Part shown: positions 37,331 through 40,101 of the stretch, piece by piece | Layout of the letters: every line of letters starts with the position of its first letter | Numbering within the stretch: the stretch's first letter is position 1 | NCBI RefSeq assembly: GCF_010731875.1 | Contig: NZ_AP022595.1 | Location: 2,294,001-2,358,000 of the forward strand | DNA length: 64,000 nt | Origin: Mycolicibacterium sarraceniae | GTDB taxonomy: Bacteria; Actinomycetota; Actinomycetes; Mycobacteriales; Mycobacteriaceae | Reading direction: 5' to 3' | Program-made: the position numbers and the translations under genes | Notes under the pieces: model-generated | Told to the model about the DNA's origin: nothing | Databases searched by the model: none | The model's input: the letters and a program-made list of their open reading frames with translations, nothing else

Positions 37331-37482
37331 ATGGCAACGCATGGCCTAGACCACGCCGCCAACCTGTTTCGGCAGAGCGTCGACCAGCTCGACGCGGCAA
37401 CCGATCTAGATGGCCTGACCACCGCACGTACCGCGTTGGTCACCGGCGTGCTGGCATTGCTCGACGCAGCACACCAGGGGTG
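37331..37482 (+). pseudogene. 5' part of a hypothetical gene interrupted by an IS1380-type fragment
   Basis: ATG 37331 opens a frame reading ATHGLDHAANLFRQSVDQLD and then TTARTALVTGVLALLDAA, a short helical protein. From about 37482 the frame runs antisense to transposase sequence, so the natural 3' part is gone or lies beyond the element. The preceding 130 bases are AT-rich for this genome and probably hold its promoter. Family unknown. Confidence 0.4.
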
Positions 37483-38020
37483 CCGGGTAGCAACTCGAGC
37501 CGCTGACACAATGCCACCAGGTGCTCGCGTAGCACCGATTCCAACTGGCGGGCGTGCCCGAAGGTGAACTCCCGCAACAACGTTGCGACCGTCGACGGTG
37601 CGTACACCCCGCCGAAGGGGGTCTTCATACCGCCCGACCGGACCACGTCGAGGTCGTCGATGCAGTCCGCGCCCGCGCACATGACCGCCACCACGGTGGC
37701 CAGTTTCGGGGCGGGGTTTGCCGACCCGGACTTGATCCGCGGCGTCGTGATCTGGACCTTCTCATCAAACAACCTGCCCAGCCCGGTCTGCTCGGCCAAC
37801 GTCATGACCGGCACAAGTCCGGCGCACGACACGAGATTGTCCTCGTCGAACACCGCTGACTCCGCGGCGAACCCATGCGAAACTTGCACTGGAAGTGCCT
37901 TTCCGAACTGGACCCGATTGCTGCCTGAGAACACCAATCATCCCAGTTCAGAGGGCACTTTCTTCATTCCGACACTCGGCTAACCCCACCGCCCGTCGGT
38001 GGATTCAGGCTAAACCCGCA
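37482..38020 (-). mobile_element. IS1380-family insertion sequence fragment (5' part of transposase)
   Basis: The minus strand carries the N-terminal 140 residues of an IS1380-type transposase: LVSCAGLVPVMTLAEQTGLG, the GSANPAPKLATVVAVMCAGA segment, CIDDLDVVRSGGMKTPFGGV and STVATLLREFTFGHARQLES, ending at LLPG near 37482. The rest (about 300 residues with the DDE catalytic residues) is missing, so it cannot transpose. The 5' flank up to about 38020, with GGTTTAGCCTGAATCCACCG near 38010, probably includes the left terminal repeat. The truncated end joins directly to a host gene. Confidence 0.7.
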
Positions 38021-38064: not shown

Positions 38065-39210
38065 TTACCCAGCTACACCCAATGCCAGCACCGCAGTGTC
38101 GTCCTCGACGCCTGACCCGAAACCGCTGAGCAACTTCTGTATTTCGTCGATCAGCACATCCACGGTTGCCGGGGCGAGGTCGGTGGCGAACCTACGCAGG
38201 GCACCGTCATCGTCGAATCGGCGGGTCCCGTCGCCGATGAGTGCCTCGGTCAAGCCGTCGCTGTAGAGCAGCATGGTGTCACCGGGGGTCAGTCGCAGGG
38301 AGGCGGCGACGAAGTTCGGCTGGTCGGTCAGACCGACTGCCATGCCGCCGGTGATGTCTAGATAGCTGGCCTCGCTGTTGTGTTCGAGCAGCAGCGGTGG
38401 CGGATGCCCGCCACTGGCCAACCGCACCACGAATTTGCCGTCACTTTGGGTCAGCGTGCCGAACACCACCGTGCAGAAGCTGGGTGTCTCGGCACGGATT
38501 TCTTGACGCAGAACGGAATTCAGCCGATGCAGCACGGTGATGGGGTCTGGGTTGACGACGGCGGCGGTGCGCATCGTGTACCGCATCAACGAGGTGACCG
38601 CCGCGGCTTCGGGGCCCTTGCCGCACACGTCCCCAAGGAAGAATCCAGACATTTTGGGGGACAACGGGAACAGGTCGTAGAAGTCGCCGCCGATGTCTTG
38701 TACCGAGGGTTGATAGTAGGTGGCGGCGGTGAGTCCCTCGGGCACCGACAGTGCCGGAGGCAGGAGCGAGCGCCGCAAGGTGTTCGCCAGCGCTTGTGCT
38801 CTGGCCTGCTCGGATTCAGCCCGTTGGCGCTCATCGAGCAGGGCACGTTCGTACGAGCGCCGTTGGCGAGCATCTTGGATGGCAATCCGGAACAACGCCG
38901 GGCTACCGTCCTCGTCGTTCTTGAAATTGGCGCTCACGAACACCGGCCGACGCGAACCGTCAGCGGTGAGCAACTCCATGCTGATTTCGTCCAGTTGCCC
39001 GCTCATCGTCAGCAACGGCGCGAACTGGGTTTCGTAGGGTATCCGGCCGCCGACGGTGAAGAGGTCGGCAATCTGCTTGCCACGCAGCGTATTCGGTATG
39101 TGACCTAGCCAGGAGGCCAGGGTGGTGTTGACCCGGACGATTTCCCCGTCGACCGTCGCGGCCAGCAGCCCGATGGGTCCGTTCTCCCAAAGTTCCTCGA
39201 CGTCGGTCAT
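38065..39210 (-). CDS. PAS-PP2C (SpoIIE-type) phosphatase, RsbP-like
   Basis: This 381-residue serine phosphatase has an N-terminal PAS domain (IGLLAATVDGEIVRVNTTLA, residues about 12-125), a coiled-coil linker (QRRSYERALLDERQRAESEQ) and a C-terminal PPM/SpoIIE domain from about residue 160. Metal-binding residues are present in DIGGDFYDLF, FFLGDVCGKGPEAA, LLYSDGLTEA and VEDDTAVLALG. In Bacillus subtilis, RsbP of the same architecture dephosphorylates an anti-anti-sigma factor under energy stress and is activated by RsbQ. Here an RsbQ-like gene is directly upstream and overlaps by one base (TGATG). No anti-sigma pair lies in the window. Confidence 0.85.
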   Translation of the reverse strand: MTDVEELWENGPIGLLAATVDGEIVRVNTTLASWLGHIPNTLRGKQIADLFTVGGRIPYETQFAPLLTMSGQLDEISMELLTADGSRRPVFVSANFKNDEDGSPALFRIAIQDARQRRSYERALLDERQRAESEQARAQALANTLRRSLLPPALSVPEGLTAATYYQPSVQDIGGDFYDLFPLSPKMSGFFLGDVCGKGPEAAAVTSLMRYTMRTAAVVNPDPITVLHRLNSVLRQEIRAETPSFCTVVFGTLTQSDGKFVVRLASGGHPPPLLLEHNSEASYLDITGGMAVGLTDQPNFVAASLRLTPGDTMLLYSDGLTEALIGDGTRRFDDDGALRRFATDLAPATVDVLIDEIQKLLSGFGSGVEDDTAVLALGVAG

Positions 39211-39959
39211 CAGCCGGCGAATGCGGCGACGACTTCAGCGGTGGCGTCAGGCGCGCTGACGTGCGGGCAGTGGCCGGTGGCATCCAGGGTGGACAAGCGG
39301 GCACTGGGGATGTGATCGCGCACGTAGGCACCTACTTCGGGCGGCGCGATGGCGTCCTGGCGGCAGTCGACGACCAGCGTCGGGATCGGGACGCTCTCCA
39401 GGTCGGCCCGGTTGTCCGACAGAAACGTGGCCCGGGCGAAGACCTTGGCGGCCGCGGGATCGGTGCGACAGAACGTGGCCGCGAGGTCCTCGGCGAGTTC
39501 TGGTCGGTCGGCGTTGCCCATGATCGTTGGGGCCATCGCCTGCGGCCAGCCCACGTAGTTGCTCTCTAGTGAGTCGAGCAATTCGTCGATGTGGCGGGGC
39601 GACGGGGTGATCATCACGAGCTTGGCGAAGCGGGCCGGTGCAGAAGCCACCGCCAGGGCCCCGATCATCGCGGCTACGCAGTGCCCGACGAGCACCACGT
39701 CGCTGAGGTCGAGTGCCTCGACGAGTTCCACGACATCGTCGGCGTAGCCCGTCAGGGCGTACTTGTCTGGGTTCCAGGCCGCGGGTGCGGCGTTTCCCGA
39801 GCCGACGTGGTCGAACAGGACGAGGTCGAACTGCTCGCGAAGCCGCGCCGCCACCGGATGCCACAGCTGCTGGTCGCAGCCGAAGCCATGGGCCAGCATT
39901 ACTGTCGGTCCGCCCGCGTTGCCCACGCGAGTGACGTTGTTGAGGGTCGCGACGTCCAT
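39210..39959 (-). CDS. Alpha/beta hydrolase, RsbQ/KAI2-type signalling protein
   Basis: This 249-residue protein matches the RsbQ family: the start NNVTRVGNAGGPTVMLAHGF, the GCDQQLWHPVAARLREQFDL segment, the FDHVGSGNA loop and LVMITPSPRHIDELLDSLES. The nucleophile elbow reads VGHCVAAMIG, where RsbQ and KAI2 have Ser; the codon is TGC. Asp in VVDCRQDAIAP and His in DATGHCPHVSAP complete the triad. RsbQ activates RsbP in B. subtilis, where the genes have the same order. ATG 39959 was chosen because the family match starts at MDVATLNNV. Translation is coupled to the phosphatase. Confidence 0.85.
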   Translation of the reverse strand: MDVATLNNVTRVGNAGGPTVMLAHGFGCDQQLWHPVAARLREQFDLVLFDHVGSGNAAPAAWNPDKYALTGYADDVVELVEALDLSDVVLVGHCVAAMIGALAVASAPARFAKLVMITPSPRHIDELLDSLESNYVGWPQAMAPTIMGNADRPELAEDLAATFCRTDPAAAKVFARATFLSDNRADLESVPIPTLVVDCRQDAIAPPEVGAYVRDHIPSARLSTLDATGHCPHVSAPDATAEVVAAFAG

Positions 39960-40101
39960 ACGATTCAGTGTGTCAGGGGCTTCGTGTTGGCGGCACAAAC
40001 AAAGTTCGCGTGCCCTACTTGGCCTGTACAGGCTCGCGTCACCACGGCCGTGTGCTATAGCCCTAGCAAACAGCGTGCACGTCAACGTCGGGGTAGGTTT
40101 C

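What the first reader, a model, noticed from the sequence alone, without database searches (positions are those of the whole stretch)
38065..39959. RsbQ/RsbP-like energy-stress module in a mycobacterium, with Cys at the hydrolase nucleophile
An RsbQ-like alpha/beta hydrolase and a PAS-PP2C phosphatase overlap by one base, in the same order as the B. subtilis rsbQ-rsbP operon. The phosphatase retains all metal-binding motifs. In the hydrolase the nucleophile elbow is VGHCVAAMIG (codon TGC) where RsbQ and KAI2 have Ser, while Asp and His of the triad are retained. RsbQ needs its triad to activate RsbP, so a Cys version might bind or turn over a different small signal, or hold a stable thioester. 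No anti-sigma partners are nearby, so the target is open.
Basis: partly seen in the sequence, partly recalled or inferred. Interest (0 to 1): 0.7.

Follow-up and report, generated by a model that had tools for sequence, protein, structure and literature searches.

The report
RsbQ-RsbP stress switch, apparently uncoupled
In one environmental mycobacterium, both proteins of a known bacterial stress-sensing pair have lost the parts thought to let them talk to each other, while the output enzyme looks intact; this offers natural evidence for where the two proteins touch.

Summary
Window 39210-39959(-) encodes an RsbQ homologue with Cys94 at the nucleophile, overlapping a PAS-PP2C (RsbP) gene, 38065-39210(-), by one base. 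Cys is unique here: 213 of 214 tabulated near proteins have Ser, as do 160 of 164 distinct locus ORFs, the other four being gapped, truncated or frameshifted.

The hydrolase lacks a 14-residue lid stretch containing GGF. Its B. subtilis counterpart (L126-G135 plus F136) was reported as a speculated RsbP contact (PMC3183031, Fig. S2 legend). The partner's PAS domain has Pro58 and Gln62 at the positions matching RsbP F55 and Y59, whose alanine mutants are null and disturb RsbQ binding. Position 62 is His in all 156 other partners compared. Conserved PP2C positions are kept except Gly279.

Averaged over the branch, both genes are under purifying selection (omega 0.07 and 0.10), so any loss is recent or the pair has been re-matched. 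I favour recent uncoupling of the RsbQ input with the phosphatase kept. A novel Cys hydrolase is possible but weaker. This is a new variant of a known module, in a single genome.

The parts
39210..39959 (-). RsbQ-homologous alpha/beta hydrolase, 249 aa, Cys94-Asp202-His230
39678..39680 (-). codon of Cys94 (nucleophile elbow VGHCVA); Ser in every readable relative tabulated
39582..39599 (-). codons 121-126, holding the junction where relatives carry 14 more lid residues (18 aa between SP and ELL; 4 here)
   Evidence: 18 aa in 160 of 164 ORFs; 18 aa in 207 of 214 proteins, 4 aa only in P0001 and P0020
38065..39210 (-). RsbP-like PAS-PP2C phosphatase, 381 aa
38875..39210 (-). PAS domain (about residues 1-112)
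   Evidence: Pfam PAS_9 19-113 (26.7 bits, cut-off 27) and PAS_4 8-118 (23.8 bits, cut-off 23.1)
39037..39039 (-). codon of Pro58; matches B. subtilis RsbP F55 (relatives: 94 His, 53 Tyr, 7 Leu, 1 Phe, 1 Asn of 156)
39025..39027 (-). codon of Gln62; matches B. subtilis RsbP Y59 (His in 156 of 156 other partners)
38065..38760 (-). PP2C/SpoIIE domain (about residues 151-381); highly conserved columns intact except G279S
39960..40026 (-). short leader of the operon; 8 of 12 closest-clade loci carry a GAF-GGDEF gene on the same strand upstream of rsbQ (directly upstream in 7); absent in the window and in the other 4

Best explanation
This is a genuine RsbQ-RsbP module by descent whose RsbQ-to-PAS signalling link was lost recently in this lineage, while the phosphatase output was kept. 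[quoted passage not shown] Here the hydrolase has Cys for Ser, lacks the lid loop speculated to be the RsbP contact, and its partner has lost both F-alpha residues whose counterparts are needed for RsbQ binding. The PP2C domain keeps its highly conserved positions except Gly279. It probably still dephosphorylates an unlinked STAS-type anti-anti-sigma protein, at a basal level or under another control. The hydrolase ORF stays open because the loss is recent and perhaps because rsbP translation is coupled to it. Shown: sequence changes, uniqueness among tabulated relatives, conservation, omega. Inferred: loss of contact, phosphatase activity, target, coupling.
For: Cys94 is unique: 213 of 214 proteins have Ser; 160 of 164 locus ORFs have Ser and 4 are gapped, truncated or frameshifted. 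Of 80 hydrolase columns at least 97% conserved among 157 pairs, the window deviates at 10; the next highest has 5, and 117 have none. The missing stretch covers RsbQ L126-G135/F136, reported as a speculated RsbP contact (alignment). RsbP F55A and Y59A are null and disturb RsbQ binding; the matching window residues are Pro58 and Gln62. The closest phosphatase found, P0216 (331 of 381 identical), keeps His at both, so these changes came late. AlphaFold confidence for window residues 121-180 is 62-74, against 91/90/84/76 for M. sphagni residues 121-160 (67 for its 161-180). Triad substitutions in RsbQ are stated to be null. No second RsbQ was found in the genome.
Against: Omega on the window branch is 0.072 for the hydrolase (roughly 0.04-0.13) and 0.10 for the phosphatase, not different from background. 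Both hydrolase indels are in frame and there is no stop. Damage to RsbQ elsewhere did not bring the PAS change: of the broken, gapped or cut RsbQ loci whose F-alpha can be read, L053, L099, L116, L241 and L091 all keep His62 (5 of 5; the phosphatase itself is intact only in L053 and L099), and orphan phosphatase L239 keeps it too; L039 lacks that stretch and orphan L240 has it gapped. Y59A RsbP was present at only 50-60% of wild-type level, which may add to its null phenotype.
Confidence: 0.58

Rival explanations
1. Re-matched pair: the hydrolase is still a working partner, now with a Cys nucleophile or as a non-catalytic receptor with an open pocket, and the PAS changes compensate for the missing loop so that the two still interact, possibly with a different ligand or a longer-lived thioester.
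Against: No relative tabulated shares the Cys or the PAS changes; the changes sit at near-invariant positions; Pro58 and Gln62 lack the aromatic or H/Y side chains of the class; the lid is modelled with low confidence.
Confidence: 0.22
2. The whole operon is dying, in a neighbourhood that has been rearranged next to a possible insertion-sequence remnant; the phosphatase will follow.
For: The upstream GGDEF gene present in 8 of 12 clade loci is absent; flank downstream differs; genome 4.8 Mb against 5.4-6.8 Mb in G312, G183, G301 and G093.
Against: The phosphatase shows no relaxed selection (omega 0.10 against 0.09) and keeps its conserved PP2C columns but one.
Confidence: 0.08
3. Sequencing or assembly error produced the unusual residues.
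For: Only one genome; a metagenome protein (P0020) with a similar 14-residue gap is otherwise identical to P0058, which may be an artefact of a repeat-prone spot.
Against: Several independent unusual sites in two genes, all in frame; the Cys codon differs from the Ser codon of the five relatives compared at two bases; single-contig genome reported 100% complete.
Confidence: 0.05

Closest known systems
RsbQ-RsbP module of Bacillus subtilis (PMC3183031; RsbQ PDB 1wom)
   Same: Gene order, overall fold, PAS-linker-PP2C layout, Asp and His of the triad
   Different: Cys for Ser96, lid loop L126-G135/F136 missing, PAS F55 and Y59 positions occupied by Pro and Gln, target unknown
RsbQ-RsbP homologues of Mycolicibacterium sphagni and relatives
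   Same: Orthologous operon: P0004 is 88% identical to the window hydrolase; the G312 phosphatase is 83% identical
   Different: They keep Ser, the full lid loop and both PAS His residues and, in 8 of 12 clade loci, an upstream GAF-GGDEF gene
KAI2 / D14 plant receptor hydrolases, including crystallised KAI2 S95C (8u33, 8u2l)
   Same: Fold and triad layout; a Ser-to-Cys version exists as a laboratory mutant, and ShHTL7 S95C was used as a test mutant (passages)
   Different: About 30% identical, plant proteins with other partners; the window protein also lacks the lid loop and the Phe after GG

Membership tests
RsbQ | Closest by sequence and fold to RsbQ among solved structures | tested here: met
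RsbQ | Ser-Asp-His catalytic triad | tested here: not met
   Cys94-Asp202-His230
RsbQ | Lid loop and Phe (L126-G135, F136 in B. subtilis) | tested here: not met
   14 residues absent; numbering read from the alignment
RsbQ | Encoded immediately upstream of an RsbP-PAS protein | tested here: met
   One-base overlap; 164 of 164 distinct relatives also have a same-strand PP2C match in the locus
RsbQ | Activates RsbP | not testable with these tools
   Needs biochemistry or genetics
RsbP (RsbP-PAS class) | N-terminal PAS and C-terminal PP2C | tested here: met
   Pfam
RsbP (RsbP-PAS class) | Central coiled-coil | not tested
   No coiled-coil computation was run
RsbP (RsbP-PAS class) | Aromatic at F55 and His/Tyr at Y59 in F-alpha | tested here: not met
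   Pro58 and Gln62; class consensus
RsbP (RsbP-PAS class) | Conserved PP2C residues | tested here: met
   Of 61 columns at least 97% conserved over the whole protein only H62 (PAS) and G279 deviate; SpoIIE 135.7 bits
KAI2/D14 | Orthology to plant strigolactone/karrikin receptors | tested here: not met
   RsbQ scores far higher (228.9 against 135.6 bits or less)

The most novel reading that the evidence does not exclude
A natural double change maps the RsbQ-RsbP interface: the RsbQ lid loop docks on the PAS F-alpha helix. In this lineage both faces were replaced together, yielding a lid-less Cys hydrolase still matched to its own altered PAS domain and answering a different signal.
Probability: 0.2. 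Interest if true: 0.65.

Novelty: new variant of a known kind. Interest (0 to 1): 0.42.

Why it matters
The signal and the contact surface of the RsbQ-PAS module, a bacterial cousin of the plant karrikin and strigolactone receptors, were described as unsolved in the paper read here (PMC3183031, 2011). A lineage in which the suspected RsbQ contact loop and the suspected PAS contact residues are both gone, while the rest stays under selection, is independent evolutionary evidence for a loop to F-alpha contact. The idea can be tested directly in B. subtilis. If the pair still works, it would be a naturally Cys-based, lid-less version of this receptor family.

Tried and rejected
A Cys subfamily of RsbQ: rejected as far as tabulated; Cys was found nowhere else. 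A lid-less subfamily: not supported; P0020 lacks nearly the same stretch but P0058 and P0052, otherwise identical or nearly so, have it, and no other of the 214 proteins lacks it. A simple old pseudogene: rejected by omega. A second RsbQ that could replace this one: none found in the genome. IS transposase identity of window 37440-37937: no Pfam match; the IS1380-like label is recalled. Looking for a published Ser-to-Cys D14 mutant by the term S97C gave 0 papers. I found no report of RsbQ with Cys or of this loss in the listings; these cover open-licence papers only, and most were seen as listings. The original RsbQ structure paper is not held, so its loop proposal is cited second-hand from PMC3183031. 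Which organism this is was not settled; the window's own records may be left out of the named collection.

Full report
What is there. The window holds two minus-strand genes sharing one base: an alpha/beta hydrolase of 249 aa (39210-39959) and a PAS-PP2C phosphatase of 381 aa (38065-39210). The hydrolase is closest to B. subtilis RsbQ among solved structures (1wom, E 8e-67), then to Oleispira olei00960 and plant KAI2/D14. The phosphatase matches SpoIIE and PAS families. The nucleophile elbow reads VGHCVA, with Asp202 and His230 kept.

Is the pairing real? In 396 genomes of the genus (a sample drawn from a larger group, own genome included), 102 have a hydrolase match at E<=1e-15, of which 99 are at 1.1e-45 or better. 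98 have the PAS-PP2C at E<=1e-60, and all 98 are among the 102 (the lists were compared by eye). All 164 distinct hydrolase ORFs collected from this sample and from the named genome collection lie in a locus with a PP2C match on the same strand. The second copies in G168 and G055 (L239, L240) have no match to the hydrolase above 30 bits in the 6 kb read around each.

Is the Cys shared? Not in what was tabulated. Among 214 proteins from the listings of two searches of 5.8 billion sequences, 213 have Ser and one, the window, has Cys (120 rows listed per search, of 7981 and 7950 hits, so only the nearest were tabulated). Among the 164 locus ORFs, 160 have Ser; three have a gap there and one has Arg in a frameshifted piece. 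The window protein is a cluster of one sequence.

More than a Cys. The window hydrolase lacks 14 residues that relatives carry between SPRY and DELL, including a GGF motif, and one residue earlier in the protein. The segment between SP and ELL is 18 aa in 160 of 164 ORFs and 20 aa in 2; the remaining two are a gapped and a frameshifted piece. A short direct repeat flanks the missing stretch in relatives, as expected for a slippage deletion (sequence; inference). By the alignment the missing stretch covers RsbQ L126-G135 and F136. The figure legend in PMC3183031 reports that Kaneko et al. speculated this loop to be a direct contact with RsbP and a gate of the cavity (section read). The Tyr before it is His123 here; the matching KAI2 Tyr124 lines the pocket (passages; residue matching by position).

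The partner changed too. PMC3183031 (abstract and sections 5, 6, 7, 11 and 19 read, section 11 part 1 only) defines class residues of RsbQ-linked PAS domains in the F-alpha helix: aromatic at F55 and His or Tyr at Y59. F55A and Y59A are null, and both are said to disturb RsbQ binding in two-hybrid tests; F55A kept a normal protein level, while Y59A stood at 50-60% of wild type. An ungapped offset of three residues places these at window Pro58 and Gln62. The C10, L13, L48, P62 and P86 positions fit the same offset among relatives (115 Cys, 106 Leu, 137 Leu, 142 Pro and 147 Pro of 156), whereas E72 does not (144 Gly of 156). I had no verified B. subtilis RsbP sequence, so the register rests on these published positions. 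Position 62 is His in 156 of 156 other partners; position 58 is His, Tyr or Phe in 148 of 156. These 156 are what remained after 8 of 164 entries were dropped, seven of them short or broken and one (L143) for lack of a partner that passed the filter. The closest phosphatase found, metagenome protein P0216 (331 of 381 identical), keeps His at both, so the PAS changes came after that split. Its hydrolase was not seen.

Conservation test. Among 157 pairs, 80 hydrolase columns are at least 97% conserved. The window deviates at 10, six of them inside the missing loop; three sequences deviate at 5, and 117 at none. In the phosphatase 61 such columns exist; the window deviates at 2 (H62Q, G279S), and five sequences deviate at more, up to 15 in one cut by its contig end. 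So the hydrolase is a clear outlier. The phosphatase is not, except that one of its two deviations is the RsbQ-binding position.

Selection. A codon branch model on 10 taxa (chosen from 14 aligned, on a tree with moderate support of 64-95 at most inner nodes) gives omega 0.072 on the window branch for the hydrolase, against 0.052 elsewhere, with about 0.04-0.13 as the 95% range. For the phosphatase it is 0.101 against 0.090; omega of 1 is strongly rejected for both. If neutral time simply averages in, at most about 8% of the hydrolase branch was neutral (my arithmetic). By parts, five of six regions look constrained; in the last 67 codons of the hydrolase the estimate ran to the limit (2dlnL 9.6 against one ratio; not distinguishable from neutral). 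Raw counts there are 16 synonymous and 8 nonsynonymous codon differences from M. sphagni, against 23 and 1 between M. sphagni and G301. I treat this as suggestive only. The indels were not part of the model.

Neighbourhood. In 8 of 12 loci of the closest clade a GAF-GGDEF gene lies on the same strand upstream of the hydrolase (directly upstream in 7; about 3 kb away in L036). The other four (L038, L039, L042, L123) show none in the 2.3 kb or more held upstream. The window genome has no close match (best 35% identity), and only about 67 bases separate the hydrolase from the sequence that in relatives lies beyond the GGDEF gene. The gene was probably lost here, but its absence is not special to this genome.

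Targets. The genome has three SpoIIE phosphatases including this one (a fourth, partial match is below the cut-off), five STAS matches and 15 HATPase_c_2 matches, 8 over the cut-off, none of the STAS or HATPase_c_2 matches in the window. In M. smegmatis the SigF system uses the STAS protein RsfB (passages), so an RsfB-like protein is a plausible but untested substrate.

Conclusion. The module is RsbQ-RsbP by descent, but it fails two defining features of RsbQ (Ser in the triad, lid loop) and one of the RsbP-PAS class (F-alpha residues). The simplest account is a recent loss of the RsbQ input with the phosphatase kept. A re-matched pair cannot be excluded and would be the more exciting outcome. 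Counter-examples: five loci with a broken, gapped or cut RsbQ (L053, L099, L116, L241, L091) and orphan L239 keep the PAS His; L039 lacks that stretch and orphan L240 has it gapped. The co-loss is seen in one genome and carries limited statistical weight.

Noticed in passing
window 37440-37937: ORF resembling the N-terminal part of an IS1380-type transposase (recalled; no Pfam match), just downstream of the phosphatase.
   Followed up: partly
L035:9316-10353: GAF-GGDEF gene upstream of rsbQ in 8 of 12 clade loci (directly upstream in 7), suggesting a c-di-GMP link to this module; absent from the window genome and from 4 of the 12 loci.
   Followed up: partly
L240 (G055 second copy): Orphan PAS-PP2C without RsbQ whose PAS F-alpha stretch is gapped, whereas orphan L239 (G168) keeps it.
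   Followed up: partly
P0020 (metagenome protein): RsbQ lacking nearly the same 14-residue stretch but with Ser, otherwise identical to P0058; a deletion hot spot or an assembly artefact.
   Followed up: partly
L099 (G392): RsbQ ORF with an in-frame gap covering the nucleophile and lid, beside an intact PAS-PP2C.
   Followed up: partly
L035:12320-14241: Downstream of rsbP in M. sphagni lie a DUF2855 gene and another alpha/beta hydrolase; the DNA comparison shows no match to this stretch in the window.
   Followed up: no
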